A stretch of 64,000 nt of DNA from Orobanche coerulescens (Eukaryota > Streptophyta > Magnoliopsida > Lamiales > Orobanchaceae), in the NCBI GenBank assembly GCA_033398695.1, contig CM065801.1:47130358-47194357 (forward strand), written 5' to 3'. Under the pieces are notes generated by a model, which did not search any database, was not told the origin of the DNA, and saw only the letters and a list, made by a program, of their open reading frames with translations. This document shows, piece after piece, positions 17,356-64,000 of the stretch. The first letter of the stretch is position 1. Each line of letters opens with the position of its first letter. Made by a program: the position numbers and the translations under genes.

Positions 17356-17367
17356 GCTCCGATACCA
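17356..17367 (-). other. Primer binding site, interior 1
   Basis: Minus strand TGGTATCGGAGC, 4 bases from the LTR end. Same one-base variant of the tRNA-iMet site as in the host element at 12128. Confidence 0.88.
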
Positions 17368-17371
17368 TATT

Positions 17372-23593: not shown

Positions 23594-23598
23594 TGAAA

Positions 23599-37650: not shown

Positions 37651-37780
37651 GAAAAGATAATGTTGAGTATCATGTGATCTATTGCCAAACCAAATAAAAA
37701 TATTGTACTGCGGATTTATCTTATTCTATCAATGAACTTTTGATCTTATTGTCTGACCGAGATTGGCTGGCACGATTCGT

Positions 37781-43759: not shown

Positions 43760-43840
43760 ATGGCTAGAAAGAGGAAGGTTAGCATAAGGGCTAGGACACA
43801 ATCGTCCCCCACAAGAGGGGAAACTTCACAATGCTGTTGA
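43760..43840 (+). pseudogene. Start of the Athila third ORF, truncated by recombination
   Basis: MARKRKVSIRARTQSSPTRG and six more residues, then stop. It sits right after a good splice acceptor (TTTTCAG, 43744-43750), in the position of the extra 3' ORF (env-like region) of Athila elements, and is rich in Arg/Lys as such starts often are. Sequence from about 43830 onward is identical in kind to the small array units, so the ORF was cut off at the join. Confidence 0.5.
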
Positions 43841-44905
43841 TGGTTTTTGTCAAAAACGTGAATTTTTCGTGAATTTTTCCTGCTTCCGTGTGTAAAACTG
43901 ATGTTACGATACTAATTCCTCTTGGAAGAAACAGTTGAGTTTTGGTCGAGTTGCAGTCAGCGATATCTGCTTCTGTTGAGTATTCAATTAGGTCCGAAAT
44001 TTTATCGTTTTTTTAGAAATCTTAGAAGATAAGAAAGGAGACATACGTGTTTTCAAATCACCGTTTATACGTTTGGTTAAACTTTTCGCGTAGCTAGTCG
44101 TCCAGTAATATGAGTCTTGTTGGCACTTGGATTGAGTTTAGAGTCGGACAGTTTTTAAAAAAAGTCGAGATATTAGTTGTTCTATGATGGGAAATCTAGT
44201 AACCGGGGGTATTCACGTGACCCGTGGTTTACTCTCGCGTAAAACGACGACCCTGAATAGATTAATATTTTAGAAATATCGCATTACCGATGATGAGAAG
44301 CCTAGTAACTGGGGGTATTCACGTGACCCGTTGTTTACTCTCGCGTAAAACGGCAACCTTGACATACGGGAATTGCTATTCGAGTTTTTTCTCCGCTGTA
44401 GAGGGAGACTTAGTAACTAGAAGCATGCATGTGCCCCATGGGTGACTTTTATGTCAAACGGTTTCCCGATACATGAGAATGGAAATCCACCCTAGGATCA
44501 TCCCGATGAAATATCCCGAAAGCCGAAACCTAGTGGTTAACTCGAATCATATTATTGATCATACATAAGGGAATACTATACGAGGATTAATTTTGACAAT
44601 GAAACTCTTCAATTTTTTGCCACTAGACTGTGGGACTGGGCGAGTTGGCTCGTTTATTTTACACGCTTGTTAATCTTTGAGCTGGATTTTCTTCATAAAC
44701 GATTGATTAGGACTGAAATTGGTTACTTAGTGGAATCAGTGTCCTGGATGTGACTCATTATTACGATACTTGTACTATTATTTGAGATTTTCAGGGTAGT
44801 ATTGATTAAGTTGAGCACTATGGACTTGCATGATTATTCACGATACATTTTGTTTAAAATTGATTTTTGCTTGAGGACAAGCAAAGGCTCAAGTTTGGGG
44901 GTATT
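43829..44905 (+). mobile_element. Interior 3' part of the small Athila-like element, fused to the gag-protease element
   Basis: From TGCTGTTGATGGTTTTTGTC onward this matches 55260-56360, 58999-60102 and 62743-63843. It includes the three ~107-bp repeats (44190-44480) and ends with AAGTTTGGGGGTATT, the polypurine tract before the LTR at 44906. A short segment present in the units (about 56087-56112, CCCTTCATATTGGCGGTCGG) is missing at 44660-44672. Confidence 0.85.
44190..44480. repeat. Three ~107-bp repeats (unit 0)
   Basis: TAGTAAC marks each copy, followed by a CACGTGACCC or CATGTGCCCC block and a GTAAAACG or GTCAAACG block; third copy most diverged. The same trio occurs at 55612-55925, 59354-59668 and 63097-63410. 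Confidence 0.75.
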
Positions 44906-46192
44906 TGTTAGGCATATTTTTATGCATTTATTGATCATTATTTTATATACATCTTGAGCCTAAAAATGCATAAATGAGCTTTTAATGCTCTATTTTTATA
45001 TGTTTTGCAGGAAATCGGAGTCCGGAATCCGAAACGATAAAAAACAGGCGAAAACAGCAGTTTTTGGTCATGAGCCGCGGCACAAGCCAAGTGAGCCGCG
45101 GCACACGAAGACAACCAGCGAGCCCCGAGTGGACTGTACCATTAGCCGCGGCACAAGTAAAGTGAGCCGCGGCCCAGGAGGAAAATATGCGCCCAAGCAT
45201 CCGGTGCTGAGCAGTAGGGGCCGCGGCACATATTAAGTGAGCCGCGGCCCACATGGCGGTTTTGGCTGAGCCTTCCGCGTTTCTTCGCCGTTTTGGAGCC
45301 TGTTCTCGACCTAATCACACGGATGCGTTTTGAAGGCTGATAACAGTTATAAATAAGCATTGAAGGGCTGAAAACAGGAGAGAATCATCGATCAGAAGGA
45401 AGACATCGCGGTACGGGGAAGAAGAACACAAGAAGGAAATTTGTGGGCGACGACAAGACCACGGATCCTTACGGTTTTTCTTAGTTTTTCCGCATCTTAG
45501 TTTCTAGATCTATTCGAGTAGGATTGTGATTGTAGCCGATTTCATGACGGTTTGATTTATTTATTATTATTTTGATTTACTCGTTATTCGTATTGAGTTA
45601 AATTCTTCTTACTGTTCTTAATGCTTTTTAATTGTCTGGCCAATAGTTGAATTGTTTTGAATGTCTTTATTCGGGGGATGAAATTTAGGCATAGTTCTTG
45701 TGAGACGAATCATAATTTTCGTGAGATAGGAATATACTCATGGGAATTGTGAAGCCTATTTATTGTGGGAATTCTTGAACTGTTTTAGCTATTAATTATC
45801 AAATTCGAATAGGGATATATCGAGTTAATAATTCGTAGTATTTTCTATCGACCTTGGGAAAGGATTTAGAATAAATTAGGAATTCCTGGCTTACAATCAA
45901 TTGAATAACGGTGAATTGAATTGAATAAAAATTATTCCTGATTGTTTGAGGTGAAAATCATAATCCTACACCCTTATTATTATTATTATCTTTATTATTA
46001 TTTTCTATTTATTTTTCTGCTATTAGTTTAGAAATAAATTCTATAATAATTGTTCTTCAAATAAAATTGTGAGTTGACTATATTTTGGTACTTAGTGAAA
46101 TCAGTCCTCGAGGGAACGATATCTTACTTATCACTTTATTACTTGTTGACACCGTGCACTTGCGGCATAGTGTGAGGGATTTCCTCACAACA
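44906..46192 (+). repeat. Array LTR 1
   Basis: TGTTAGGCATATTTTTATG to CCTCACAACA. GCCGCGGC array 45073-45251, TATA box GTTATAAATA at 45347-45356. It has private differences from the later LTRs (GCATATTTTTATGCATT near the start, GTGCACTTGCGGCATAG near the end), so it is the oldest or outgroup copy. Confidence 0.92.
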
Positions 46193-46198
46193 AGTTTT

Positions 46199-46217
46199 TG
46201 GCGCCGTTGCCGGGGAC
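46199..46217 (+). other. Primer binding site, array unit 1
   Basis: TGGCGCCGTTGCCGGGGAC, as in the gag-protease element. Units 2 (57655) and 3 (61397) share a change to TGGCGCCGTTGTCGGGGAC. Confidence 0.88.
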
Positions 46218-46290
46218 TGATTTTTCGCTAATATCAATACCAAACGACTCTAATTTTAATTTGAAGTTTTCTTTAGTCTCTTTATTTTTA

Positions 46291-46372
46291 TTATGTTTTC
46301 CTTTGATTATCGTGACCCATGGCATTTCATAAATCCGAATGTTCTTAATAATTTGCCTAATAGGGTCAGTCA
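46291..46372 (+). pseudogene. Array ORF, unit 1, first part (split by chromovirus)
   Basis: MFSFDYRDPWHFINPNVLNN and a few more residues (LPNRVS), then the chromovirus insertion at 46373. The frame continues at 54089 as QPPPPKQKTMFEQ. See 61491 for the full product. Confidence 0.75.
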
Positions 46373-48323
46373 TGTAATATCCGTAACTTTCCATTTTTAA
46401 CAGTTTCCATTTTTGGTGTATGTCTATTTTTATCGACTCGCTTGTAACCGTTTCGACATTTTGAATCTACTTTGTTCTTGGAGTTTTTCCATTTGGATGA
46501 GTTTTGGTGATGTTTTCACGTAATTTCATTTTTCGTCATGTTTTGCCGTATGAACGTTCAATTCTTGTAAAACTCGTTCGTTTCCATTGTTTCTTGGTTT
46601 GTACAAGTTCGTATGGTTGAGTTGTTCATGTTGAGAGTTTCGGTTTGTAAATCCGACGTCGTTTCGTGACTTTCGGTCACTTGGGCCATTTTTGTAATTT
46701 CCTATAAGTTTAGGGAATTTCTTATTCATTGTCGTATTTCGGATTCCCGGGTAGTCGGAATGATGTTTTCTTGTGATGGTTAGACTCGTCATCGAATATT
46801 CTTCGTAGTCGTATTTTTGGTTCGATAGCAGTCCAGGTTTCGGGTCGTCTGAATCGTTTGGGACAATGTTGCCAAGATCTTCTTTGTCCGAGGGTGTTAC
46901 GGCCGTAACACCCAGAAGTTACGGCCGTAAGTTGGCCATGTTATGGCCGTAAGTGTCCCCTGTTACGGCCGTAACAGCCCGCTGTTTTAAAACAGCGGGC
47001 AGAGGTCCAACACCTCATTTTCTATCCTTTTCTTTCGTTTTCTTCACGGGGCGACTCTAGAGGCGATTTCCTTCAGTTTTGATCGAAGAATTCTTCGTGT
47101 TCCATCACCGTAGAATCGTAGTAGCATATCACCATCAGCGTAATCATCCTTCATCGTCCAAATCCAAGGTATTTTCTTCAAGAACCCTAACTTTTATAAA
47201 TTGGGGTTTTTTCGGGTTTTTCGTGATTGATTCCGAATTGTTCATGTATGTTGCGAAACTTCTTACCGATTGTTGTTATTGGGTGATTCCCAATCCGTTT
47301 TCTTCGAATTAATCCGTGAATTATCAATACGGGGAGATTTTGCGTATACCCTCGCCCGTATTGATTGAACGTCTATTGTCGTGAATTGTAATCGGGGTTA
47401 TGGGAGTATTCCTTTCGATTTTTGTTGTCCGTTGGGACTGAGTTATGTTAATTCTTCGTTAGGAACCGTCGTCTTCCACTCGGATCATCCGTAGTCGTTT
47501 TTCACTTCCGACTCTTCGAAGATGTCACAAAGACAAGTACTTTACATTTGTTTACATGTTCTAGTATTTGAATTATGGCTTTATCGTGGTTGTTGTGGAT
47601 GGATATGTGTATGTTCACCTAGGGACGGTTCGACGGGACCTCTAGGGATACGTATTGCCGTGAGTGTGCGTATCTCGAACTGTGGTTAGCCACCCAGGGA
47701 TGTCCGACGGGGCTCTGCGGGGTACGGAGGCCGTGAGTCTCGTACCGACGGTTAACTTTGAATTGTGATTTGTTGGAGATAATGTGTTTTGTGATTGTAC
47801 GTTGTAAATATTCCAGAATATAAAATGTTTTCTAAAATGATTTTTGGCGCATATATTCATCTGATTAGAATGTAGTTCAAATGGATTGTACTTGCACTAG
47901 CAGTTGTCGCTAACCCCTTAAATGGGGGAAATACTTTTTGTATTTCAGGTATCGATCGTGGGGACAAACGAGCACTTGAGCCGTATGAAGATGATGGGTA
48001 AGCATGATACTGTTCAGTAGTCAATTGTTGGTGTTCAGTTCCGTCAATTATTTTTGATGTCTTGTTTTGGGGTTTCTGTATTATAAAACTGGTTTAAGTA
48101 CTCGAGTACTTCCTTTTTAAAATTGTTAATGTTTTGTTACCGTTTTGGGAAATGGATTGATGTTGGATTCTATTTGTCGGGTTGTAGTCTTTTATTTGAA
48201 TTGTCGTTTTATTGATGATTGTTTGTCGTTGACGAATGTCTTGTTGGTACGTTAGCCTGGTGGATTCCACAGTGTGGGGTCCACGACGTTGTAATATGCC
48301 CTGAATGTCTTGGGGGTGTTACA
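46373..48323 (+). repeat. Chromovirus 5' LTR
   Basis: TGTAATATCCG to GGGGGTGTTACA. It contains a TTACGGCCGTAA array (46895-46977), a GTTTTAAAAC inverted repeat next to it (46983-46992), a CT-rich leader, CGACGGG-type repeats (47620-47760), hairpins TAGC-AGTTGTC-GCTA and CCCC-TTAAAT-GGGG (47899-47927), and a TTTTTGTATTTCAG splice-acceptor-like site (47935-47948). Confidence 0.92.
46895..46977. promoter_or_regulatory. TTACGGCCGTAA array in chromovirus 5' LTR
   Basis: Four sites spaced about 20-30 bases: GTTACGGCCGTAAC, GTTACGGCCGTAAG, GTTATGGCCGTAAG and GTTACGGCCGTAAC. The 3' LTR equivalent (52662-52745) is badly altered, with TTCTGACCGTAA and CATGGCCAGAAT among the sites. Confidence 0.75.
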
Positions 48324-48328
48324 GAATA

Positions 48329-48340
48329 TGGTATCAGAGC
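48329..48340 (+). other. Primer binding site, tRNA-iMet
   Basis: TGGTATCAGAGC, six bases (48324-48328 spacer of five) after the 5' LTR end; the standard site for chromoviruses. Confidence 0.93.
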
Positions 48341-48749
48341 TTAGGTTTATGGATACCTAGGCTGTCGGTTATTTGGGTCTAGTCGAGTGTCGTTTTGAAC
48401 AGTATCACTATCATGCCATCATCTCCGTACGCCGGTGCCCGTAAGTTTTTCCTAACTTGACTCGTTTCACCGTTCTGTTCTATTCCTGTCTTAGTATCTT
48501 GTTGCGTTTTGCTTTTGAATTGTACTCACCCGTTACTTCTTCAGAATTCCTGCTGGTAGAGGATGCGGACGCGGTTGCGGACGCGGTCGTGGACACGGTA
48601 GGGGACGTGGCGCATCCGGTGGGGCGGCCATGTCCGATCACTCGGGAACTGATTCGGTGATGCCTTCTTTGTCTAACAGTGTTCCCCCTAGTTCCGGAGG
48701 TCAGTAGGACCAGTCTGCTAGTTCCGGTAATGCACATGAGAATGTTGGA

Positions 48750-49800
48750 GTGGCCAACATTTTGCAGCGAGTAGCGAACCAGATGACGCTACTGACTCAG
48801 GCCGTTTTGGTCGGCCAGGCTAATGGTAACCCGGTTCCACCTACTAGATCCGGAAATGATAAGTTACTTCAGGACGTGATTCGTATGCGTCCTCCGCAGT
48901 TTGATGGTGCTTCCGACCCTTCTGGTTGGGAGAATTGGCTATTCGAGATGGAGAAAGTATTTGAGGCTGCTAATTGTTCTAAGGAGAGGAAAGTACCCAT
49001 TGCTCAGTGCTTCCTCACCAAGGAGGCAGCAACGTGGTGGCAAGCGGTGAAACCGCGTGACCGGGCAGCTACGTGGGCAGAGTTTCGGGATCTGATGGAA
49101 GACGAATTCTGTCCATGGCCAGTGAAAGAGGGGAGGATCCGAGCCTTCTTTGAGGCTAAGCCCCAAGATGTTCCTATTTCTCAAGCTATCAAAGACTACA
49201 ATCAACAGCTGCATTATGTGAGAAACCAAGTCCGAGATCAGCTTGATAAGATCCGCCACTTTGATATGCGGATGAAACCGAGGGTGCGCCACTACATGGC
49301 TGGTCTGGGGTGCACGACTTTGAAAGAGTATCAGAATAAAGCGATGGCTTACGAGATGTCGTTTTCTGCGACAGAGACGGCAACCGAAGGAAAGAAGCAG
49401 AAGACCTCCGGTCAGTTTTCTGGAGGTAAGTCAGGAGGGTATCCGAAGGCTCAGTCTGGTTCGCAAGTCTTCGGGAGTCAGTCGCCATTAGTTGGGCGAG
49501 GAAACGGTTCTAGGTCTGCTCCTGCTGGTTCCGTTCGTGGTCCTACGTGCTTCAACTGTAGTCGTCCGGGACACATGATGAGTGAGTGTGATAGGCCTCC
49601 GATTCAGTGCCTTGCTTGTGGTCGGATGGGTCATCGTGCTAAGTTTTGTACGGATGCAGCTCGGGCTCCAGTTACTCAGATATCAGCCCCAACTGCGGGA
49701 GAGCCGAGTGTGAATCAGGCACCGACAGTTCCTCAGCCGCAGCAGAGTCTTGGTAGAGGTCGAGGACGTGGGCAGCCTTCTAGAGGAGGAGCACGCCCGT
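48750..49800 (+). CDS. Chromovirus Gag
   Basis: From ATG 48750 the protein shows [20 protein letters not shown] (residues ~49-68), [16 protein letters not shown] capsid sequence ([15 protein letters not shown]), [32 protein letters not shown] and two zinc knuckles, [14 protein letters not shown] (~269-282) and [14 protein letters not shown] (~289-302), followed by an RG-rich tail. In-frame sequence upstream (48546-48704) encodes another RG-rich stretch (GRGCGRGCGRGRGHGRGRG) cut off by TAG at 48705, so the true start probably lay upstream. After about 49790 the frame runs into deleted pol in a wrong frame and ends at 49865. Confidence 0.88.
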
Positions 49801-50600
49801 CATTTGCATATTGTGTTAGATATTTTAAGAACTCAGCATCTTTTTGCGAAGTTCTCAAAGTGTGAGTTTTGGTTACGGGAGGTTATGTTTCTCGGTCATG
49901 TGATCTCGGCCGAGGGTGTTCGTGTAGACCCACATAAGGTAGGGGCAGTGTTGGATTGGGCACCGCCCAAGAACGTGAAGGAGGTCCGTAGTTTTCTGGG
50001 ATTAGCCGGGTATTACCGTAGATTCGTCGAGGGGTTCTCTAAGCTCGCTCGACCGCTGACTCAGTTGTTACAGAAGTCGGAGAAGTTTGTGTGGACCGAT
50101 GAGAGGCAGAATAGTTTCGAGGAGTTGAAGAAGCGGTTGACGACTGCTCCTGTTTTGGCCTTACCTAGTGGTAATGAGGGTTTCTCAGTTTTCAGTGATG
50201 CTTCGGGCCAAGGGTTCGGATGTGTACTTATGCAGCACGGAAGGACGATTGCCTATGCTTCCCGTCAGTTGAAACCGTACGAGTTGAATTACCCTACGCA
50301 CGATCTTGAGTTGGCCGTAGTTGTATTTGCACTAAAGATCTAGCGTCATTACTTGTATGGCTCGTCGTGTCAGATTTTCACCGATCACAAGAGCTTGAAG
50401 TACATTTTTACACAGAAAGAGCTTAATATGAGATAGAGGAGATGGTTAGAGTTGATTAAGGACTATGATCTCGAGATCCTTTATCATCCGGGCAAGGCTA
50501 ACGTGGTAGCAGATGCCTTGAGCCGGAAATCGGTATCGCTTCGGGCGCTTGAGTTGCTTACGGCCCAGTCGGGACTTCAGCCAGAGTTTATGAGATTGAG
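49785..50600 (+). pseudogene. Reverse transcriptase C-terminal part and RNase H
   Basis: Begins [20 protein letters not shown], which follows the catalytic DD motif in intact relatives; that motif and everything back to protease are missing. It continues [27 protein letters not shown], then RNase H with [38 protein letters not shown] and [19 protein letters not shown]. Stops: TAG at 50341 (Trp site in ALKI-W-RHYLYG) and TAG at 50434 (Gln site in [15 protein letters not shown]). [17 protein letters not shown] closes the domain. Confidence 0.9.
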
Positions 50601-52097
50601 CATTGAGGTTGTACTACAGAGAGTTCCGGGCAGTTGCGTACTCTTGAGGTTTCTTCATCTCTGGTCGATGACATTAAATCGGGACAGTTGGAGGACCTGA
50701 TGTGTATTCAGCTCGGAGAGAGTGTAGGAAAGGGGAAAGCCCCGGGATTCGTTATTCATGAGGACGGTGTGTTGAGATTCCGAGTTCGGTTGTGTGTTCC
50801 GAACGACTCGGGATTGAGACAGAGTATTATGTGAGAGGCTCATGCGTCACCTTACTCAGTCCATCCGGGCTCGAGTAAAATGTATAAAGATTTGAGGAAA
50901 AATTTCTGGTGGAACGACATGAAGAATGAGGTAGTTCAGTTTGTGGCTAAGTGTTTGACTTGTCAGCAAGTCAAGATTGAGCATCAGCGGCCAGCCGGGC
51001 TGTTGAAACCACTTCCCGTCCCGGAGTGGAAGTGGGAGGATATCTCTATGGATTTTGTTACGGGTTTGCCGAGGACGAAGACTGGTATGAATATGGTGTG
51101 GGTGATTGTAGACCGACTGACTAAGTCGGCACATTTTCTGGGCATCAAGGATACTTGGGGTCCAGAAAAGTTGGCTCGTATTTTTATCGCACAGATAGTG
51201 AGACTTCATGGTACGCCGAGGACCATTATTTCAGACAGAGATGGCCGATTTGTATCACATTTTTGGCAGGCGGTACATAAGGCATTGGGGACACGGTTAC
51301 GTTTGAGCACTTCGTTCCATCCCCAGACCGATGGGCAGTCCGAACGTACCATTCAAACGTTCGAGGATTTTTTGCGCGCGTGTGCGTTAGACTCGAGTAG
51401 TGACTGGGAGGAACATTTGGCCTTAATTGAGTTTACTTATAATAATAGCTGGCACGCGTCGATGAAGATGGCACCATATGAAGCACTTTATGGCCGACGT
51501 TGCCGATCACCGATATGTTGGGATGAGCCGTCCGATTTGGTTGGCACCGAGCCGGACCTCGTGTTAGAGACGAGGGATAAAGTTGAGTTGATTAGAAAGA
51601 GGATGTTGGCTGCCCAGAGTCGACAAAAGTCTTATGCGGATGTTAGGCGTCGACCTTTGGAATTTGAGGTGGGAGATCATGTTCTGTTGAGAGTGTCTCC
51701 GACGAAAGGAGTTTTCCGTTTTGGGAAGAAGGGGAAACTCAGCCCGAGATATATTGGACCTTTCGAGATATTGGAAAGAGTGGGCGAGTTAGCGTACCGT
51801 TTGGCTTTACCTCCATCGTTGAGTCATGTGCATAGCATATTTCACATTTACCAGTTGAGGAAGTACGTTCCGGACCCATCCCACATTATTGATTTTGGAG
51901 ACGTGGAAATCGAGAAAGATGTTACGTTTGAGGAGAGGCCCGTCAGAATTTTGGAGCGTCGAGGCAAACAGTTAAGGCACAAAACTATTTCTTTGGTTAA
52001 GGTGCAATGGTCGAGACACGGGGTAGAAGAAGCGACATGGGAGTTAGAGGAGGATATGCATTCGAGGGATGCGTTCGAGGCATCCCGAACTTTTTGA
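50601..52097 (+). pseudogene. Integrase with chromodomain-like tail
   Basis: A frameshift near 50600-50640 and TGA at 50832 precede the long frame 50880-52097 (405 codons). The HHCC zinc finger spans EAHASPYSVHPGSSKMY to CLTCQQVK. The catalytic DDE triad is visible as ISMDFVTGLP, IISDRDGRFVSHFW and HPQTDGQSERTIQ. The GPY/F-like block reads LSPRYIGPFEILERVGELAY. VQWSRHGVEEATWELEEDM is the chromodomain-related end seen in Tekay/Del elements, proposed to steer integration to particular chromatin. The catalytic residues are intact in the 50880 frame, but the zinc finger is separated from the rest of the polyprotein by stops. Confidence 0.9.
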
Positions 52098-52123
52098 TTC
52101 TTAAGTTTCGGGACGAAACTTAA

Positions 52124-52139
52124 TTTTAGAGGGGGAGAA
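52124..52139 (+). other. Polypurine tract of the chromovirus
   Basis: TTTTAGAGGGGGAGAA directly before the 3' LTR, after the block TTTCGGGACGAAACTTAA. Confidence 0.9.
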
Positions 52140-54083
52140 TGTAATATCCGTAACATTCCATTTTTAGCAGTTTCCATTTATGGTTTATGTCTATTTTTAT
52201 CGACTCGCTTGTAACCGTTTCGACATTTTGAATCTACTTTGTTCTTGGAGTTTTCCATTTGGATGAGTTTTGGTGATGTTTTCACGTAATTTCATTTTTC
52301 GTCATGTTTTGCCGTATGAACGTTCGATTCTTGCAAAACTCGTTCGTTTCCGTTGTTTCTTGGTTTGTAAAAGTTCGTATGGTTGAGTTGGTCATGTTGA
52401 GACTTTCGGTTTGTAAATCCGACGTCGTTTCGTGACTTTCGGTCACTTGGGCCATTTTTGTAATTTCCTATAAGTTTAGGGAATTTCTTATTCGTTGTCG
52501 TATTTCGGATTCCCGGGTAGTCGGAATGATGTTTTCTTGTGATGGTTAGACTCGTCATCGAATATTCTTCGTAGTCGTATTTTTGGTTCGATAGCAGGTC
52601 CGAGTTTCGGGGTCGTCCGGAATCGTTTGGACAGCCAAGATCTTGCCCGATCTGCCCAAGGGTGTTACGCCGTAACACCCGAAATTCTGACCGTAAGTTG
52701 GCCATGTTACGGCCATAAGTGTCCCCTGCATGGCCAGAATGTGCCCATTGCTTTAAAATGCGTGAGGTCCAACACCTCATTTTCTATCCTTTTCTTTCGT
52801 TTTCTTCACGGGGCGACTCCAGAGGCGATTTCCTTCAGTTTTGATCGAAGAATTCTTCGTGTTCCATCACCGTAGAATCATAGTAGCATATAACCATCAG
52901 CGTAATCATCCTTCATCGTCCGAATCCGAGGTATTTTCTTCAGGAACCCTAACTTGTATAAATTGGGGTTTTTTCGGGTTTTTCGTGATTGATTCCGAAT
53001 TGTTCATGTATGTTGCGAAACTTCTTACCGATTGTTGTTATTGGGTGATTCCCAATCCGTTTTTTTCGAATTAATCCGTGAATTATCAATACAGGAAGAT
53101 TTTGCTTAAACCCTCGCCCGTATCGATTGAACGTCTATTGTCGTGAATTGTAATCGGGGTTATGGGAGTATTCCTTTCGATTTTTGTTGTTCGTTGGGAC
53201 TGAGTTATGTTAATTCTTAGTTAGGAACCGTCGTCTTCCACTCGGATCATCCGTAGTCGTTTTTCACTTACGACTCTTCGAAGATGTCGCAAAGGCAAGT
53301 ACTTTACATTTGTTTACATGTTCTAGTATTTGAATTATGGCTTTATCGTGGTTGTTGTGGATGGATATGTGTATGTTCACCTAGGGATGGTCCGACGGGA
53401 CCTCTAGGGATACGTGTTGCCGTGAGTGTGCGTATCGCGAACTGTGGTTAGCCACCCAGGGATGTCCGACGGGGCTCTGCGGGGTACGGAGGCCGTGAGT
53501 CTCGTACCGACGGTTAACTTTGAATTGTGATTTGTTGGAGATAATGTGTTTTGTGATTGTACGTTGTAAATATTCCGGAATATAAAATGTTTTCTAAAAT
53601 GATTTTTGGCGCATATATTCATCTGATTAGAATGTAGTTCAAATGGATTGCACTTGCACCAGCAGTTGTCGCTAACCCCTTAAATGGGGGAAATACTTTT
53701 TGTATTTCAGGTATCGATCGTGGGGACAAACGAGCACTTGAGCCGTATGAAGATGATGGGCAAGCATGATACTGTTCAGTAGTCAATTGTTGGTATTCAG
53801 TTCTGTCAATTATTTTGATGTCTTGTTTTGGGTTTTTGTATTATAAAACTGGTTTAAGTACTCGAGTACTTCCTTTTCAAAATTGTTAATGTTGTGTTCC
53901 CGTTTTGGGAAATGGATTGATGTTGGATTCTATTTGTCGGGTTGTAGTCTTTTATTTGAATTGTCGTTTTATTGATGATTGTTTGTCATTGACGAATGTC
54001 TTGTTGGTACGTTAGCCTGGTGGATTCCATAGTGTGGGGTCCACGGCGCTGTAATATGCCCTGAATGTCTTGGGGGTGTTACA
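52140..54083 (+). repeat. Chromovirus 3' LTR
   Basis: 1944 bp, close to the 5' LTR except for the palindrome array (52662-52745), where substitutions and small losses are concentrated. Confidence 0.92.
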
Positions 54084-54088
54084 AGTCA

Positions 54089-54745
54089 GCCCCCTCCGCC
54101 GAAACAAAAGACCATGTTTGAACAATGTGTAGACGCTCTCGAAAATCCTGATAGTACACCTCTTGAGCGAGAATGTGCACGTCGTGGTCTTGAGATTCAC
54201 TACGGTTATTTTCCAGCTCATTGCTTTAGTAGTGAAGTTGAGGGGGAGGTTGAGAAGAAAAACATGCTAAGTTTTAGGGTCGATCCCCCAGCACCTGATA
54301 ATTACATAAAGTGTGATGAGCCTGTAGAAGAAGTTACCATTGATGATGTTTCCAAAGAAATTTCATTAACTTGTCATAAAACTTCGACTAATAAGGTGAA
54401 CACTTATGTGCCAAAAATTTTATTAACGGTGCCACGCATAATTTTCCCTAAATCCATAATGGGAGAGATTGACCCCATTACTTGTGATTTTTTTGAGGCT
54501 GATTCTTTGAGTTCTAATGAGGTGGTTCATGATATGTCTTTATTATTTACCCATTCGAACTCTGCTTATTTTTTCGTGCCTTATAATTATTATATTCTTC
54601 CATCATTTTTGGTTGTCCGCATAACTATTCTTACTCATTATTTTTGGCAACCAGGCATGATCCAAAGCCTCCCTTATGGAATAAGAGGCTTATAGATTGC
54701 AAGAAGGGGGTATTTGGCAATCTCCCTAGAAAGAAGCCACGTTAA
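54089..54745 (+). pseudogene. Array ORF, unit 1, second part
   Basis: QPPPPKQKTMFEQCVDALEN to FVPYNYYILPSF, then a T-run of five where unit 3 has six, so the frame shifts and ends at 54693-54695. The coding remainder (LIDCKKGVFGNLPRKKPR equivalent) reads on in another frame to 54745. Confidence 0.75.
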
Positions 54746-54789
54746 ATTTTTTTTGCCACGTCGTGCTCAAGACGTAAAATAGAGCGCTT

Positions 54790-54807
54790 GGTGGGAGGCA
54801 ACACATC
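54790..54807 (+). other. AGGCAA hairpin, unit 1
   Basis: GGTGGG-AGGCAA-CACATC; five of six pairs retained (one G-A mismatch; G-T allowed). Confidence 0.65.
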
Positions 54808-55611
54808 ATTTTTACTTGCTTTCTAGTTAGTTGTTTTTATTTGATTTTTCGTTTTTAATTTTGCTTTGTTTTGTTATTTCGTTTGGATTCGTGTATTCTT
54901 GTTGGCCCTTATTTCTCTATTATTTTGTTTATATAACCCCAATGAGTTATTATCCTTCATATTCTAGTCTTTCTTGACTTAATGTCTATTGTTATTTCAT
55001 GACTAGAGACTAAGTTTGGGGGTCCCTCGTGATGTTGAGCATTATTTGAAGTATGGATTGACCGACGTTTCCACTCAGACATGTGCTGGCGTTCAAGAAG
55101 ACATTTGGAATAAGATTCACTTTTCCTTATCTCTTTTATTTTCACATGAGTTTTATTGTTGATGATTTTATGTGTAGTGGAATAAATTGAAGCATGCGAT
55201 ATTCTCTTAATTTTTCTTGGTTATAAATTGCGATTTCATCATTATTTTATTGTCCTTGCATGCTGTTGATGGTTTTTGTCAAAAACGTGATTTTTTCGTG
55301 AATTTTTCGTGCTTCCGTGGGTAAAACTGATGTTACGATACTGATTCCTCTTGGAAGAAACGGTTGAGTTTTGGTTGAGTTGCGATCGGCGATATACTCG
55401 CATTGAGTATTCAATTAGGTCCGAAATTTTATCGTTTTTGTAGAAATTTTAGCAGATAAGAAAGGAGACATACGTGTTTTCAAATCACCATTTATACGTT
55501 TGGTTAAACTTTTCGCGTAGCTAGTCGTACAGTAATATGAGTCTTGTTGGCACTTGGATTGAGTTTAGAGTGGGACAGTTTTTCTAAAAAGTCGAGATAT
55601 TAGTTGTTCTA

Positions 55612-55925
55612 TGATGGGAAATCTAGTAACCGGGGGTATTCACATGACCCGTGGTTTACTCTCGCGTAAAACGACGACCCTGAATAGATTAATAATTTAG
55701 AAATATCGCATTACCGATGATGAGAAGCCTAGTAACCGGGGGTATTCACGTGACCCGTTGTTTACTCTCGCGTAAAACGGCAACCTTGACATATGGGAAT
55801 TGCTATTCGAGTTTTTTCTCCGCTGTAGAGGGGGACTTAGTAACTAGAAGCATCCATGTGCCCCATGAGTGTCTTTTACGTCAAACGGTTCCCCGATACA
55901 TGAGAATGGAAATCCACCCTAGGAT
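55612..55925. repeat. Three ~107-bp repeats, unit 1
   Basis: AGTAAC at 55625, 55731 and 55839 marks copies with periods of 106 and 108. The 92-codon frame over this stretch recurs in later units only because the units are near-identical. Confidence 0.78.
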
Positions 55926-56360
55926 CATCCCGATGAAATATCCCGAAAGCCGAAACCTAGTGGTTAACTCGAATCATATTATTGATCATACATAAGGGAA
56001 TACTATCCGAGGATTAATTTTGACAATGAAACTCTTAAATTTTTTGCCACTAGACTGTGGGACTGGGCGAGTTGGCTCGTTTATTTTAACCCTTCATATT
56101 GGCGGTCGGTTAAATTCACGCTTGTTAATCTTTGAGCTGGATTTTCTTCATAAACGATTGATTAGGACTGAAATTGGTTACTTAGTGGAATCAGTGTCCT
56201 GGATGTGACTCACTATTACGATACTTGTACTATTCTTTGAGATTTTCAGGGTAGTATTGATTAAGTTGAGCACTATGGACTTGCATGATTATTCACGATA
56301 CATTTTGTTTAAAATTGATTTTTGCTTGAGGACAAGCAAAGGCTCAAGTTTGGGGGTATT

Positions 56361-57648
56361 TGTTAGTCGTATTTTTATGCGCTTATTGATCATTATTTTA
56401 TATACATCTTGAGCCTAAAAATGCATAAATGAGCTTTTAATGCTCTATTTTTATATGTTTTGCAGGAAATCGGAGTCCGGAAGCCGAAACGATGAAAAAC
56501 GGGCGAAAACAGTAGTTTTTGGTCATGAGCCGCGGCACAAGCCAAGTGAGCCGCGGCACACGAAGACAACCAGCGAGCCCCGAGTGGACTGTACCGTGAG
56601 CCGCGGCACAAGGAAAGTGAGCCGCGGCCCAGGAGGAAAATATGCGCCCAGGCATCCGGCGCTGAACAGTAGGGGTCGCGGCACAGATTAAGTGAGCCGC
56701 GGCCCACATGGCGGTTTTGGCTGAGCTTTCCGCGTTTCTTCGCCGTTTTGGAGCCTGTTCTCGACCTAATCACACGGACGCGTTTTGAAGGCTGATAACA
56801 GTTATAAATAAGCATTGTAGGGCTGAAAACAGGAGAGAATCATCGATCAGAAGGAAGACATCACGATACGGGGCAGAAGAACACAAGGAGGAAATTTGTG
56901 GGCGACGACAAGACCACAGATCCTTACGGTTTTTCTTAGTTTTTCCGCATCTTAGTTTCTAGATCTATTCGAGTAGGATTGTGATTGTAGCCGATTTCAT
57001 GACGGTTTGATTTATTTATTATTATTTCGATTTACTCGTTATTCATATTGAGTTGGATTCTTCTTACTGTTCTTAATGCTTTTTAATTGTCTGGCCAACA
57101 GTTGAATTGTTTTGAATGTCTTTATGGAGTCGGGAGATGAAATTTAGGCATAGTTCTTGTGAGACGAATCATAATTTTTATGAGATAGGAATATAATCAT
57201 GGGAATTGTGAAGCCTATTTATTGTGGGAATTCTTGAACTGTTTTAGCTATTAATTATCTAATTCGAATAGGGATATATCGAGTTAATAATTCGTAGTAT
57301 TTTCTATCGACCTTGGGAAAGGCTTTAGAATAAATTAGGAATTCCTGGCTTACAATCAATTGAATAACGGTGAATTGAATTGAATAAAAATTATTCCTGA
57401 TAGTTTGAGGTGAAAATCATAATCCTACACCCTTATTATTATTATCTTTATTATTATTTTCTATTTATTTTTTTGCTATTAGTTTAGAAATAAATTCTAT
57501 AATAATTGTTCTTCAAATAAAATTGTGAGTTGACTATATTTTGGTACTTAGTGAAATCAGTCCTCGAGGAAACGATATCTTACTTATCACTTTATTACTT
57601 GTTGACACCGTCCACTTGCGGCACAGTGTGAGGGATTTCCTCACAACA
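56361..57648 (+). repeat. Array LTR 2
   Basis: 1288 bp. GCCGCGGC array 56528-56704 with one site changed to GTCGCGGC; TATA box GTTATAAATA at 56802-56811. Almost identical to array LTR 3. Confidence 0.93.
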
Positions 57649-57748
57649 AGTTTTTGGCGCCGTTGTCGGGGACTGATTTTTCGCTAATATCAATACCAAG
57701 CGACTCTAATTTTAATTTGAAGTTTTCTTTAGTCTCTTTATTTTTATT

Positions 57749-58435
57749 ATGTTTTCCTTTGATTATCGTGACCCTTGGCATTTCATAAATCCGAATGTTC
57801 TTAATAATTTGCCTAATAGGGTCAGTCAGCCCCCTCCCCCGAAACAAAAGACCATGTTTGAACAATATGTAGACACTCTCGAAAATCCTGATAGTACCCC
57901 TCTTGAGCGAGAATGTGCACGTCGTGGTCTTGAGATTCACTACGGTTATTTTCCAGCTCATTGCTTTAGTAGTGAAGTTGAGGGGGAGGTTGAGAAGAAA
58001 AACATGCTAAGTTTTAGGGTCGATCCTCCAGCACCTGATAATTACATAAAGTGTGATAAGCCTATAGAAGAAGTTACCATTGATGATGTTTCCAAAGAAA
58101 TTTCATTAAATTGTCATAAACCTTCGACTAATAAGGTGAACACTTATGTGCCAAAAAATTTATTAACGGTGCCACGCATAATTTTCCCTAAATCCATAAT
58201 GGGAGAGATTGACCCCATTACTTGTGATTTTGTTGAGGCTGATTCTTTGAGTTCTAATGAGGTGGTTCATGATATGTCTTTATTATTTACCCATTCGAAC
58301 TCTGCTTATTTTTTCGTGCCTTATAATTATTATATTCTTCCATCATTTTTGGTTGTCCGCATAACTATTCTTACTCATTATTTTTGGCAACCAGGCATGA
58401 TCCAAAGCCTCCCTTATGGAATAAGAGGCTTATAG
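57749..58435 (+). CDS. Array ORF, unit 2 (C-terminus frameshifted)
   Basis: 228 codons. Identical in layout to the unit 3 ORF up to NYYILPSF, then the five-T run diverts it into an unrelated 20-residue end (stop at 58433-58435). Position after the priming site is that of gag, but no Gag domain or zinc knuckle is visible. Function unknown. Confidence 0.55.
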   Translation: MFSFDYRDPWHFINPNVLNNLPNRVSQPPPPKQKTMFEQYVDTLENPDSTPLERECARRGLEIHYGYFPAHCFSSEVEGEVEKKNMLSFRVDPPAPDNYIKCDKPIEEVTIDDVSKEISLNCHKPSTNKVNTYVPKNLLTVPRIIFPKSIMGEIDPITCDFVEADSLSSNEVVHDMSLLFTHSNSAYFFVPYNYYILPSFLVVRITILTHYFWQPGMIQSLPYGIRGL

Positions 58436-58529
58436 ATTGCAAGAAGGGGGTATTTGGCAATCTCCCTAGAAAGAAGCCACGTTAAATTTTTTTTGCCACG
58501 TCGTGCTCAGGACGTAAAATAGAGCGCTT

Positions 58530-58547
58530 GGTGGGAGGCAACACATC
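58530..58547 (+). other. AGGCAA hairpin, unit 2
   Basis: GGTGGG-AGGCAA-CACATC, as in unit 1. Confidence 0.65.
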
Positions 58548-59353
58548 ATTTTTACTTGCTTTCTAGTTAGTTGTTTTTATTTGATTTTTCGTTTTTAATT
58601 TTTCTTTGTTTTGTTATTTCATTTGGATTCGTGTATTCTTGTTGGCCCTTATTTCTCTATTATTTTGTTTATATAACCCCAATGAGTTATTATCCTTCAT
58701 ATTCTAGTCTTTCTTGACTTAATGTCTATTGTTATTTCATGACTAGAGACTAAGTTTGGGGGTCCCTCGTGATGTTGAGCATTATTTGAAGTATGGATTG
58801 ACCGACGTTTCCACTCAGACATGTGCTGGCGTTCAAGAAGACATTTGGAATAAGATTCACTTTTCCTTATCTCTTTTATTTTCACATGAGTTTTATTGTT
58901 GATGATTTTATGTGTAGTGGAATAAATTGAAGCATGCGATATTCTCTTAATTTTTCTTGGTTATAAATTGCGATTTCATCATTGTTTTATTGTCCTTGCA
59001 TGCTGTTGATGGTTTTTGTCAAAAACGTGATTTTTTCGTGAATTTTTCGTGCTTCCGTGGGTAAAACTGATGTTACGATACTGATTCCTCTTGGAAGAAA
59101 CGGTTGAGTTTTGGTTGAGTTGCAGTCAGCGATATCTGCTTCTGTTGAGTATTCAATTAGGTCCGAAATTTTATCATTTTTGTAGAAATTTTAGCAGATA
59201 AGAAAGGAGACATACGTGTTTTCAAATCACCATTTATACGTTTGGTTAAACTTTTCGCGTAGCTAGTCGTACAGTAATATGAGTCTTGTTGGCACTTGGA
59301 TTGAGTTTAGAGTGGGACAGTTTTTCTAAAAAGTCGAGATATTAGTTGTTCTA

Positions 59354-59668
59354 TGATGGGAAATCTAGTAACCGGGGGTATTCACATGACCCGTTGTTTA
59401 CTCTCGCGTAAAACGACGACCCTGAATAGATTAATAATTTAGAAATATCGCATTACCGATGATGAGAAGCCTAGTAACCGGGGGTATTCACGTGACCCGT
59501 TGTTTACTCTCGCGTAAAACGGCAACCTTGACATATGGGAATTGCTATTCGAGTTTTTTCTCCGCTGTAGAGGGGGACTTAGTAACTAGAAGTATCCATG
59601 TGCCCCATGAGTGTCTTTTACGTCAAACGGTTCCCCGATACATGAGAATGGAAATCCACCCTAGGATC
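59354..59668. repeat. Three ~107-bp repeats, unit 2
   Basis: Same trio as at 55612, shifted by exactly one array period (3742 bp). Confidence 0.78.
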
Positions 59669-60102
59669 ATCCCGATGAAATATCCCGAAAGCCGAAACCT
59701 AGTGGTTAACTCGAATCATATTATTGATAATACATAAGGGAATACTATCCGAGGATTAATTTTGACAATGAAACTCTTAAATTTTTTGCCACTAGACTGT
59801 GGGACTGGGCGAGTTGGCTCGTTTATTTTAACCCTTCATATTGGCGGTCGGTTAAATTCACGCTTGTTAATCTTTAAGCTGGATTTTCTTCATAAACGAT
59901 TGATTAGGACTGAAATTGGTTACTTAGTGGAATCAGTGTCCTGGATGTGACTCACTATTACGATACTTGTACTATTCTTTGAGATTTTCAGGGTAGTATT
60001 GATTAAGTTGAGCACTATGGACTTGCATGATTATTCACGATACATTTTGTTTAAAATTGATTTTTGCTTGAGGACAAGCAAAGGCTCAAGTTTGGGGGTA
60101 TT

Positions 60103-61390
60103 TGTTAGGCGTATTTTTATGCGCTTATTGATCATTATTTTATATACATCTTGAGCCTAAAAATGCATAAATGAGCTTTTAATGCTCTATTTTTATATGT
60201 TTTGCAGGAAATCGGAGTCCGGAAGCCGAAACGATGAAAAACGGGCGAAAACAGTAGTTTTTGGTCATGAGCCGCGGCACAAGCCAAGTGAGCCGCGACA
60301 CACGAAGACAACCAGCGAGCCCCGAGTGGACTGTACCGTGAGCCGCGGCACAAGGAAAGTGAGCCGCGGCCCAGGTGGAAAATATGCGCCCAGGCATCCG
60401 GCGCTGAGCAGTAGGGGTCGCGGCACAGATTAAGTGAGCCGCGGCCCACATGGCGGTTTTGGCTGAGCCTTCCGCGTTTCTTCGCCGTTTTGGAGCCTGT
60501 TCTCGACCTAATCACACGGACGCGTTTTGAAGGCTGATAACAGTTATAAATAAGCATTGTAGGGCTGAAAACAGGAGAGAATCATCGATCAGAAGGAAGA
60601 CATCACGATACGGGGCAGAAGAACACAAGGAGGAAATTTGTGGGCGACGACAAGACCACAGATCCTTACGGTTTTTCTTAGTTTTTCCGCATCTTAGTTT
60701 CTAGATCTATTCGAGTAGGATTGTGATTGTAGCCGATTTCATGACGGTTTGATTTATTTATTATTATTTCGATTTACTCGTTATTCATATTGAGTTGGAT
60801 TCTTCTTACTGTTCTTAATGCTTTTTAATTGTCTGGCCAACAGTTGAATTGTTTTGAATGTCTTTATGGAGTCGGGAGATGAAATTTAGGCATAGTTCTT
60901 GTGAGACGAATCATAATTTTTATGAGATAGGAATATAATCATGGGAATTGTGAAGCCTATTTATTGTGGGAATTCTTGAACTGTTTTAGCTATTAATTAT
61001 CTAATTCGAATAGGGATATATCGAGTTAATAATTCGTAGTATTTTCTATCGACCTTGGGAAAGGCTTTAGATTAAATTAGGAATTCCTGGCTTACAATCA
61101 ATTGAATAACGGTGAATTGAATTGAATAAAAATTATTCCTGATAGTTTGAGGTGAAAATCATAATCCTACACCCTTATTATTATTATCTTTATTATTATT
61201 TTCTATTTATTTTTCTGCTATTAGTTTAGAAATAAATTCTATAATAATTGTTCTTCAAATAAAATTGTGAGTTGACTATATTTTGGTACTTAGTGAAATC
61301 AGTCCTCGAGGAAACGATATCTTAGTTATCACTTTATTACTTGTTGACACCGTCCACTTGCGGCACAGTGTGAGGGATTTCCTCACAACA
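60103..61390 (+). repeat. Array LTR 3
   Basis: 1288 bp. GCCGCGGC array 60270-60446 with changed sites GCCGCGAC and GTCGCGGC; TATA box at 60544-60553. Confidence 0.93.
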
Positions 61391-61490
61391 AGTTTTTGGC
61401 GCCGTTGTCGGGGACTGATTTTTCGCTAATATCAATACCAAGCGACTCTAATTTTAATTTGAAGTTTTCTTTAGTCTCTTTATTTTTATT

Positions 61491-62228
61491 ATGTTTTCCT
61501 TTGATTATCGTGACCCTTGGCATTTCATAAATCCGAATGTTCTTAATAAGTTGCCTAATAGGGTCAGTCAGCCCCCTCCCCCGAAACAAAAGACCATGTT
61601 TGAACAATATGTAGACGCTCTCGAATATCCTGATAGTACCCCTCTTGAGCGAGAATGTGCACGTCGTGGTCTTGAGATTCACTACGGTTATTTTCCAGCT
61701 CATTGCTTTAGTAGTGAAGTTGAGGGGGAGGTTGAGAAGAAAAACATGCTAAGTTTTAGGGTCGATCCTCCAGCACCTGATAATTACATAAAGTGTGATA
61801 AGCCTATAGAAGAAGTTACCATTGATGATGTTTCCAAAGAAATTTCATTAAATTGTCATAAACCTTCGACTAATAAGGTGAACACTTATGTGCTAAAAAT
61901 TTTATTAACGGTACCACGCATAATTTTCCCTAAATCCATAATGGGAGAGATTGACCCCATTACTTGTGATTTTGTTGAGGCTGATTGTTTGAGTTCTAAT
62001 GAGGTGGTTCATGATATGTCTTTATTATTTACCCATTCGAACTCTGCTTATTTTTTCGTGCCTTATAATTATTATATTCTTCCATCATTTTTTGGTTGTC
62101 CGCATAACTATTCTTACTCATTATTTTTGGCAACCAGACATGAACCAAAGCCTCCTTTATGGAATAAGAGGCTTATAGATTGCAAGAAGGGGGTGTTTGG
62201 CAATCTCCCTAGAAAGAAGCCACGTTAA
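61491..62228 (+). CDS. Array ORF, unit 3: longest copy of an unrecognised protein
   Basis: 245 codons, starting MFSFDYRDPWHFINPNVLNK 94 bases downstream of the priming site. Visible parts: a Pro-rich PPPPKQK (~31-37); an acidic to mixed stretch with YPDSTPLERECARRGLEIHY (~46-65) and FSSEVEGEVEKKN; a central part with EEVTIDDVSKEISLNC; an aromatic stretch YFFVPYNYYILPSFFG (~190-205); and a basic end, CKKGVFGNLPRKKPR. No zinc knuckle, protease, RT or integrase motif. All three array units carry it and only unit 3 keeps the six-T run giving the full end. It may be a degenerate Gag replacement or a helper-interacting protein; that is conjecture. Confidence 0.6.
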   Translation: MFSFDYRDPWHFINPNVLNKLPNRVSQPPPPKQKTMFEQYVDALEYPDSTPLERECARRGLEIHYGYFPAHCFSSEVEGEVEKKNMLSFRVDPPAPDNYIKCDKPIEEVTIDDVSKEISLNCHKPSTNKVNTYVLKILLTVPRIIFPKSIMGEIDPITCDFVEADCLSSNEVVHDMSLLFTHSNSAYFFVPYNYYILPSFFGCPHNYSYSLFLATRHEPKPPLWNKRLIDCKKGVFGNLPRKKPR

Positions 62229-62272
62229 ATTTTTTTTGCCACGTCGTGCTGAAGACGTAAAATAGAGCGCTT

Positions 62273-62290
62273 GGTGGGAGGCAACCCATC
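62273..62290 (+). other. AGGCAA hairpin, unit 3
   Basis: GGTGGG-AGGCAA-CCCATC; all six pairs form (one G-T). An upstream hairpin ACGTC-GTGCTGAA-GACGT lies at about 62241-62258. Confidence 0.72.
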
Positions 62291-63096
62291 ATTTTTACTT
62301 GCTTTCTAGTTAGTTGTTTTTATTTGATTTTTCGTTTTTAATTTTTCTTTGTTTTGTTATTTCGTTTGGATTCGTGTATTCTTGTTGACCCTTATTTCTC
62401 TATTATTTTGTTTATATAACCCCAATGAGTTATTATCCTTCATATTCTAGTCTTTCTTGACTTAATGTCTATTGTTATTTCATGACTAGAGACTAAGTTT
62501 GGGGGTCCCTCGTGATGTTGAGCATTATTTGAAGTATGGATTGACCGACGTTTCCACTCAGACATGTGCTGGCGTTCAAGAAGACATTTGGAATAAGATT
62601 CACTTTTCCTTATCTCTTTTATTTTCACATGAGTTTTATTGTTGATGATTTTATGTGTAGTGGAATAAATTGAAGCATGCGATATTCTCTTAATTTTTCT
62701 TGGTTATAAATTGCGATTTCATCATTGTTTTATTGTCCTTGCATGCTGTTGATGGTTTATGTCAAAAACGTGAATTTTTCGTGAATTTTTCGTGCTTCCG
62801 TGGGTAAAACTGATGTTACGATACTGATTCCTCTTGGAAGAAACGGTTGAGTTTTGGTCGAGTTGCAGTCAGCAATACCTGCTTCTGTTTAGTATTCAAT
62901 TAGGTCCGAAATTTTATCGTTTTTGTAGAAATTTTAGCAGATAAGAAAGGAGACATACGTGTTTTCAAATCACCATTTATACGTTTGGTTAAACTTTTCG
63001 CGTAGCTAGTCGTCCATTAATATGAGTCTTGTTGGCACTTGGATTGAGTTTAGAGTGGGACAGTTTTTCTAAAAAGTCGAGATATTAGTAGTTCTA

Positions 63097-63410
63097 TGAT
63101 GGGAAATCTAGTAACCGGGGGTATTCACATGACCCGTGGTTTACTCTCGCGTAAAACGACGACCCTGAATAGATTAATAATTTAGAAATATCGCATTACC
63201 GATGATGAGAAGCCTAGTAACCGGGGGTATTCACGTGACCCGTTGTTTACTCTCGCGTAAAACGGCAACCTTGACATACGGGAATTGCTATTCGAGTTTT
63301 TTCTCCGCTGTAGAGGGGGACTTAGTAACTAGAAGCATCCATGTGCCCCATGAGTGTATTTTACGTCAAACGGTTCCCCGATACATGAGAATGGAAATCC
63401 ACCCTAGGAT
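63097..63410. repeat. Three ~107-bp repeats, unit 3
   Basis: Same trio, 3743 bp after the unit 2 copy. Confidence 0.78.
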
Positions 63411-63843
63411 CATCCCGATGAAATATCCCGAAAGCCGAAACCTAGTGGTTAACTCGAATCATATTATTGATCATACATAAGGGAATACTATCCGAGGATT
63501 AATTTTGACAATGAAACTCTTAAATTTTTTGCCACTAGACTGTGGATCAAGTAGTTGGCTCGTTTATTTTAACCCTTCATATTGGCGGTCGGTTAAATTC
63601 ACGCTTGTTAATCTTTGAGCTGGATTTTTTTCATAAACGATTGATTAGGACTGAAATTGGTTACTTAGTGGAATCAGTGTCCTGGATGTGACTCACTATT
63701 ACGATACTTGTACTATTCTTTGAGATTTTCAGGGTAGTATTGATTAAGTTGAGCACTATGGACTTGCATGATTATTCACGATACATTTTGTTTAAAATTG
63801 ATTTTTGCTTGAGGACAAGCAAAGGCTCAAGTTTGGGGGTATT

Positions 63844-64000
63844 TGTTAGTCGTATTTTTATGCGCTTATTGATCATTATTTTATATACATCTTGAGCCTA
63901 AAAATGCATAAATGAGCTTTTAATGCTCTATTTTTATATGTTTTGCAGGAAATCGGAGTCCGGAAGCCGAAACAATGAAAAACGGGCGAAAACAGCAATT
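63844..64000 (+). repeat. Array LTR 4 (partial, runs off the window)
   Basis: Starts TGTTAGTCGTATTTTTATG after the polypurine tract AAGTTTGGGGGTATT; the first 157 bp match array LTRs 2 and 3. Whether the array continues beyond the window is unknown. Confidence 0.92.

What the first reader, a model, noticed from the sequence alone, without database searches (positions are those of the whole stretch)
44906..64000. Tandem array of a small LTR element with shared LTRs
Four LTRs and three interiors alternate at a constant ~3742-bp period with no host DNA in between. Units 2 and 3 share a mutated priming site (GTTGTCGGGG for GTTGCCGGGG) that unit 1 lacks. A copy made by reverse transcription would be expected to reset the priming site from the tRNA, so sharing of the mutation argues for DNA-level amplification by unequal crossing over, not for repeated insertion.
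Basis: partly seen in the sequence, partly recalled or inferred. Interest (0 to 1): 0.75.

Follow-up and report, generated by a model that had tools for sequence, protein, structure and literature searches.

The report
Hybrid unit in retrotransposon tandem array
In what is likely a plant genome, copies of a small retrotransposon stand head to tail sharing their end repeats, and the middle copy is a patchwork of its two neighbours, which was likely made when mispaired chromosomes swapped DNA inside the element rather than by the element jumping again; arrays of this kind are known in plants.

Summary
The array is real. LTRs start at 44906, 56361, 60103 and 63844 (the last is cut by the window end), and no target duplication lies between units. 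Two corrections apply. Unit 1 is 11,455 bp long because a 7.7-kb gypsy element (46373-54083, duplication AGTCA) sits inside it; without that it fits the period. A truncated unit tail (43831-44905) precedes LTR1.

Unit 2 is a hybrid: its left half matches unit 3 (0.75% different, against 2.88% from unit 1) and its right half matches unit 1 (0.91%, against 1.72% from unit 3). The switch lies in the interior near 58.12-58.25 kb; 0 to 7 of 10,000 shuffles reach it, by how clustered changes are merged. The left-side evidence is strong, the right-side evidence modest. One unequal exchange between two existing units gives this pattern and the extra unit. The duplicated segment runs from one interior into the next, which a normal element transcript would not span.

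How the first two units became joined is unresolved, and so is the distal end. Tandem LTR arrays are common in plants; an assembly error is not excluded.

The parts
38673..39992 (+). LTR0: 5' LTR of a related but distinct element; flanked on the left by GTAAA
   Evidence: 32-33% divergence from LTR1-LTR3; flank and motif
40131..41459 (+). gag ORF of the LTR0 element (442 aa)
   Evidence: PF03732 E 3.5e-16
41481..42713 (+). Protease-like ORF of the LTR0 element (410 aa), same frame as gag after one stop
   Evidence: PF13650 E 2e-4, below the Pfam cut-off; frame; 7359 of 7959 scored candidates with E <= 0.001, and of the 120 listed those whose name gives an organism are plants
43831..44905 (+). 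T0: truncated interior tail of a unit upstream of LTR1, ending in the polypurine tract
   Evidence: 3.1-3.5% from the tails of units 1-3; BLAST matches begin at 43831
44906..46192 (+). LTR1
   Evidence: 3.12% from LTR2 and from LTR3
46200..46215 (+). Priming site of unit 1 (GGCGCCGTTGCCGGGG)
   Evidence: tRNA-Asp match recalled
46193..46372 (+). Interior of unit 1, part left of the nested element
46373..54083 (+). Nested gypsy element in unit 1; target duplication AGTCA at 46368-46372 and 54084-54088
   Evidence: LTR pair 46373-48323 / 52139-54083; gag, zinc-knuckle, integrase zinc-binding and Tf2-1 SH3 families above the Pfam cut-off, integrase core and chromodomain below it
54084..56360 (+). 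Interior of unit 1, part right of the nested element; the exchange point maps to about 54381-54505
56361..57648 (+). LTR2
   Evidence: 0.62% from LTR3
57649..60102 (+). Interior of unit 2, the hybrid: left of about 58121-58245 like unit 3, right of it like unit 1
57656..57671 (+). Priming site of unit 2, variant GTTGTCGGGG
57749..58435 (+). ORF of unit 2 (228 aa), shifted by the one-base difference in a T run shared with unit 1
60103..61390 (+). LTR3
61391..63843 (+). Interior of unit 3; right half diverged from units 1 and 2
61398..61413 (+). Priming site of unit 3, variant GTTGTCGGGG
61491..62228 (+). ORF of unit 3 (245 aa), open to the C-terminus conserved with P0001
63844..64000 (+). First 157 bp of LTR4, cut by the window end
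   Evidence: 3, 4 and 9 differences to LTR2, LTR3 and LTR1

Best explanation
This is a head-to-tail array of a small, likely Athila-type retrotransposon that likely grew from two full units to three by one unequal crossover between misaligned units, inside the interior and not in an LTR. In this model the older array had units U1 and U2. Misalignment by one unit, with exchange about 1.8-1.9 kb into the unit, would give U1, then a hybrid (U2 left half + U1 right half), then U2. Shown: the hybrid make-up of unit 2, the position of the switch, and the shared markers on each side. Inferred: that one event made both the hybrid and the extra unit, and that it was chromatid or homologue exchange rather than another DNA-level route such as repair from a sister copy. 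The model also explains why unit 2 lacks the gypsy element although its right half matches unit 1: its left half would descend from U2, which has none. How U1 and U2 were first joined is unknown.
For: Unit 2 differs from unit 3 by 14/1878 left and 32/1862 right of the switch, and from unit 1 by 54/1874 left and 17/1862 right (unit 1's two pieces aligned apart, never joined). With changes of one kind within 10 bp counted once, unit 1 is the odd one 37 times left and 3 right; unit 3 is 8 left and 18 right; unit 2 is 6 and 7. One-changepoint test on unit-1 against unit-3 changes: 0 of 10000 shuffles reach the observed value unmerged and with 10-bp merging, 7 of 10000 with 25-bp merging (0, 0 and 8). 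Rooted on the LTR0 element, the LTR-leader region has 12 derived sites shared by units 2+3, 2 by units 1+3, 0 by units 1+2. Rooted on T0, the tail has 4 shared by units 1+2 and 0 by either other pair. A one-base difference in a T run that shifts the ORF is shared by units 1 and 2; unit 3 stays in frame with P0001 to the C-terminus, unit 2 does not. Outside an 8-site patch in unit 1, the near-identical pairings (units 2-3 left, units 1-2 right) differ by substitutions alone, not what indel-rich sequencing error would give. The duplicated segment runs from one interior through an LTR into the next interior, which a normal LTR-to-LTR transcript does not contain (inference from retrotransposon biology).
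Against: The right-hand switch is weaker than the left. Units 2 and 3 differ more on the right (p 0.007; 0.042 without a 5-site patch), but a changepoint test on unit-2 against unit-3 private changes alone is not significant (1882 of 2000 shuffles reach it with 10-bp merging, 1960 with 25-bp). The unit-1 against unit-2 test does give a changepoint (7 and 9 of 2000), with its best position off the main one, at the patch near column 2768. Two conversions of a pre-existing unit 2 would look alike. The shuffles treat sites as exchangeable. No reads, no second assembly, and the right end of the array is not seen.
Confidence: 0.68

Rival explanations
1. Gene conversion: three units already existed, and unit 2 was overwritten on the left by unit 3 and on the right by unit 1 (or the outer halves were overwritten from units outside).
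For: Small clustered patches exist in unit 1 (8 substitutions) and unit 3 (5 substitutions), so patchwise change may occur here.
Against: Needs at least two long tracts meeting at one point, and does not explain the copy number. One exchange explains both.
Confidence: 0.13
2. Assembly artefact: the two haplotypes of a two-unit array were chained, so the hybrid unit joins haplotype 1 to haplotype 2 at a repeat overlap.
For: It predicts the same hybrid, and 0.75-0.91% between the near-identical segments could be allelic. No reads could be examined.
Against: The near-identical pairings differ by substitutions, with indels only in the unit-1 patch, so it is not simple sequencing noise. The mis-join would have to occur between sequences 2-3% apart.
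Confidence: 0.14
3. Array made during reverse transcription or by cDNA recombination (template switching, one-LTR circle, or cDNA joining at a resident LTR).
For: Proposed for other arrays (passages of PMC1950507, PMC7215508, PMC11899658). The second array in this window (14337-22810) has flanking ACGGC duplications and three near-equidistant LTRs, as such a model would predict.
Against: One event should leave all LTRs equally old, but LTR2-LTR3 differ by 8/1288 and LTR1-LTR2 by 40/1284 (p 1.5e-6). The duplicated segment starts and ends inside interiors. Still possible for the founding U1-U2 array.
Confidence: 0.05

Closest known systems
Tandem LTR-retrotransposons of plants (IDENTAM survey, PMC11899658; abstract, passages and Discussion read)
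   Same: Alternating LTRs and interiors sharing internal LTRs; 266 found in a 76-accession rice pangenome; Athila enriched in Arabidopsis, almond and cotton tandems.
   Different: There the authors could not decide between one complex insertion and later recombination. Here one growth step can likely be read from a hybrid unit. Flanking duplications could not be checked here.
Tandemly arrayed TRIMs: Cassandra (PMC7215508), Wukong (PMC4528315), survey PMC4717578 (passages read; one section of Wukong)
   Same: Non-autonomous, no gag-pol, arrays of three or more LTRs (Wukong three to seven); unequal crossing over is suggested for Wukong (abstract) and for Cassandra repeat number (Discussion passage).
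   Different: Those are hundreds of bp long; this unit is 3.74 kb with 1.29-kb LTRs and, in unit 3, a 245-codon ORF. The Cassandra authors report no differences between units; here LTRs and unit halves differ by 0.6-3.1%.
Recombinant and template-switching LTR complexes (Sabot and Schulman, PMC1950507; passages read)
   Same: Three-LTR structures with a shared internal LTR; a chimeric segment is their mark of recombination.
   Different: Their chimera is the internal LTR; here the switch lies in the interior of an already tandem array.

Membership tests
Tandem LTR-retrotransposon array | LTRs and interiors alternate, internal LTRs shared | tested here: met
   polypurine tract before 4 of 4 LTRs from 44906 on, priming site after 3 of 3 LTR ends in the window
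Tandem LTR-retrotransposon array | No target duplications between units | tested here: met
   the pentamers GTATT before and AGTTT after the LTRs are the same in each case and are element sequence
Tandem LTR-retrotransposon array | One target duplication flanking the whole array | not testable with these tools
   Right end lies beyond 64000; the own-genome search did not complete in 7 tries
Athila-type gypsy lineage (non-autonomous member) | Own gag-pol of the Athila type | tested here: not met
   0 Pfam families at E up to 1 for one ORF from each of units 1-3 (no other ORF of the units was scanned); the adjoining LTR0 element has gag and protease-like ORFs
Athila-type gypsy lineage (non-autonomous member) | Priming site for tRNA-Asp and LTR related to an Athila-like element | tested here: inconclusive
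   LTR and leader 68% identical to those of the LTR0 element; the tRNA-Asp and Athila labels are recalled
TRIM | Very small element (hundreds of bp) | tested here: not met
   Unit about 3.74 kb, LTR 1.29 kb
Unequal-crossover product | Hybrid unit flanked by its two parents, switch at homologous position | tested here: met
   left side strong, right side modest

The most novel reading that the evidence does not exclude
Tandem LTR arrays, once they hold two interiors, grow as proto-satellites by whole-unit exchange that ignores LTR borders. The amplified unit is out of phase with the element, and a nested insertion is left behind in the outer unit.
Probability: 0.5. Interest if true: 0.5.

Novelty: new member of a known kind. 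Interest (0 to 1): 0.42.

Why it matters
A 2025 survey of plant LTR tandems left open whether they arise as complex insertions or by later recombination (PMC11899658, Discussion). This locus separates the growth step from the founding step. A hybrid unit bearing left-side changes shared with one neighbour and right-side changes shared with the other is a simple test that could be run on every tandem of three or more units in long-read assemblies.

Tried and rejected
Age argument from the nested gypsy: its LTRs differ by 100 of 1942-1943 sites (5.15%), more than any array LTR pair, which at first suggested homogenisation after insertion. But 58 of the 100 differences lie in 392 of 1942 sites; the rest gives 42/1550 = 2.71%, near the LTR1-LTR2 value. 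Dropped.

The boundary between diverged and similar parts is not the gypsy insertion: unit 1 stays the odd one for about 400 bp beyond it.

First alignment (tested) counted four extra columns from the duplicated target; redone and, without joining.

PBS variant in the literature: 0 papers hold GGCGCCGTTGTCGGGG. Pattern scans for either variant: 0 in viral contigs, 3 contigs with prokaryote titles, not followed. ORF relatives in viral contigs: one stretch matched a pattern, none confirmed. Protein search for the ORF: one relative, P0001; a search with P0001 found only itself.

Literature on an interior-crossover hybrid in an LTR array: the listings showed none that I recognised; I read passages of five papers only, so it may well be in print.
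Full report
What is there. From 43831 to the end of the window one small LTR element is repeated head to tail. LTRs start at 44906, 56361, 60103 and 63844; LTR1-LTR3 are 1287-1288 bp; only 157 bp of LTR4 is in the window. Each of the four is preceded by CAAGTTTGGGGGTATT, and LTR1-LTR3 are followed by AGTTTTTGGCGCCGTTG(C/T)CGGGG. The internal LTRs therefore serve as 3' LTR of one unit and 5' LTR of the next. No other DNA lies between. Spacings are 11455, 3742 and 3741. Unit 1 is longer because of a gypsy element at 46373-54083 with AGTCA on both sides. Its ORFs match gag, zinc-knuckle and integrase zinc-binding families above the Pfam cut-off, and integrase core and chromodomain below it.

What lies to the left. 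43831-44905 is an interior tail like those of units 1-3 (3.1-3.5% different). Before it is the start of a related element: LTR0 (38673-39992, 32-33% from LTR1-LTR3), a gag ORF (PF03732, E 3.5e-16) and a protease-like ORF. Of that ORF's 120 listed relatives, those whose name gives an organism are plants; this is my basis for calling the genome a plant's. GTAAA stands before LTR0. The left end of the array thus looks like a fusion to another element, with the junction at 43831; its origin was not followed further.

The hybrid unit. I compared the three units site by site. In one search the two pieces of unit 1 were aligned apart. Left of about 58.24 kb (unit 2 coordinates) unit 2 differs from unit 3 by 14/1878 and from unit 1 by 54/1874. 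Right of it, unit 2 differs from unit 1 by 17/1862 and from unit 3 by 32/1862. Merging changes of one kind within 10 bp, unit 1 is odd 37 times left and 3 right, unit 3 is 8 left and 18 right, and unit 2 is 6 left and 7 right. A one-changepoint test on the order of the unit-1 and unit-3 changes was reached by 0 of 10000 shuffles (unmerged and 10-bp merging) and by 7 of 10000 (25-bp merging). The best break is 58121-58152 or, with 25-bp merging, 58232-58245, with support 58058-58395 at the widest. It lies in the small ORF, about 1.8-1.9 kb into the unit.

Rooting. With the LTR0 element as outgroup, the LTR and leader hold 12 derived sites shared by units 2 and 3, 2 by units 1 and 3, and 0 by units 1 and 2; 21 are private to unit 1, 2 to unit 2 and 3 to unit 3. 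With T0 as outgroup, the tail holds 4 shared by units 1 and 2, and 0 for either other pair; 8 are private to unit 1 (all in one patch), 5 to unit 2 and 12 to unit 3. Two single markers tell the same story. The priming-site T is in units 2 and 3; unit 1 and the LTR0 element have C. A one-base difference in a T run of the ORF is shared by units 1 and 2. Unit 3 matches P0001 over 176 residues to the C-terminus, while unit 2 matches over 111 and stops short, so the shorter run is likely the derived state. Unit 2 carries both markers. Length changes in T runs recur easily, so this second marker is the lesser one.

Mechanism. One exchange between two misaligned units at the switch point would make, in one step, an added unit that is the left of U2 and the right of U1, standing between its parents. 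It would also explain why the gypsy element is only in unit 1. The duplicated stretch runs from interior to interior through an LTR, so normal reverse transcription of one unit does not make it (inference). LTR ages disagree with one event for all units: LTR2-LTR3 8/1288, LTR1-LTR2 40/1284, p 1.5e-6. Gene conversion or an assembly join of two haplotypes remain possible; reads would decide.

Weak points. The right-hand evidence is thinner than the left: 4 rooted sites, one T-run indel, p 0.007 falling to 0.042 without one patch. A control test on unit-2 against unit-3 changes shows no changepoint (1882 and 1960 of 2000). The same test on unit-1 against unit-2 changes is significant (7 and 9 of 2000), with its best position at the small patch near column 2768. 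The genome could not be searched.

Comparison. Arrays of this kind are known. The 2025 survey (PMC11899658) found 266 in a rice pangenome and Athila enrichment in Arabidopsis, almond and cotton, and left the mechanism open. TRIM arrays (PMC7215508, PMC4528315, PMC4717578) and recombinant complexes (PMC1950507) are close kinds. What this locus adds is a likely readable growth step with the exchange inside the interior.

A second array. At 14337-22810 on the minus strand three 2.4-kb LTRs alternate with two interiors of 635 and 638 bp, with ACGGC on both sides, inside an LTR of another element. Its LTRs differ by 0.96, 1.13 and 1.29%. The test for a hybrid middle LTR (first against third) is not significant (1339 of 2000); of the other two pairings one is not (1593) and one is borderline (71 of 2000). 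This would fit formation at or soon after one insertion, and contrasts with the stepwise array reported here.

Noticed in passing
14337-22810: A second LTR tandem on the minus strand: three 2.4-kb LTRs and two interiors of 635 and 638 bp, flanked by ACGGC, inserted in an LTR (6577-9549 / 12144-14336 + 22816-23594, 2.06% apart) of another element.
   Followed up: partly
46373-54083: The LTR pair of the nested gypsy element has 58 of its 100 differences in 392 of 1942 sites (alignment columns 401-800), as if one LTR had been patched from another copy.
   Followed up: partly
61491-62228: ORF of 245 aa in the small element with no Pfam hit; one distant relative (P0001, 41% over 70%) with the same C-terminus FGNLPRKKPR. 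Function unknown; may be a conserved ORF of non-autonomous relatives.
   Followed up: partly
43760-43831: A possible ORF start (MARKRKVSIRARTQSSPTRGETSQ) is cut at the junction with the array tail at 43831.
   Followed up: no
29146-31973: CACTA-type (label recalled) transposase remnants: Transposase_21 (E 2e-91) and DUF4216 (E 1.1e-23).
   Followed up: no
55380-55409 and 63540-63560: Short clustered changes (8 substitutions in unit 1, 5 in unit 3) that look like small conversion patches.
   Followed up: no
37780-38116: A 168-bp segment repeated twice in tandem at 98.8% identity about 0.55 kb left of LTR0.
   Followed up: no
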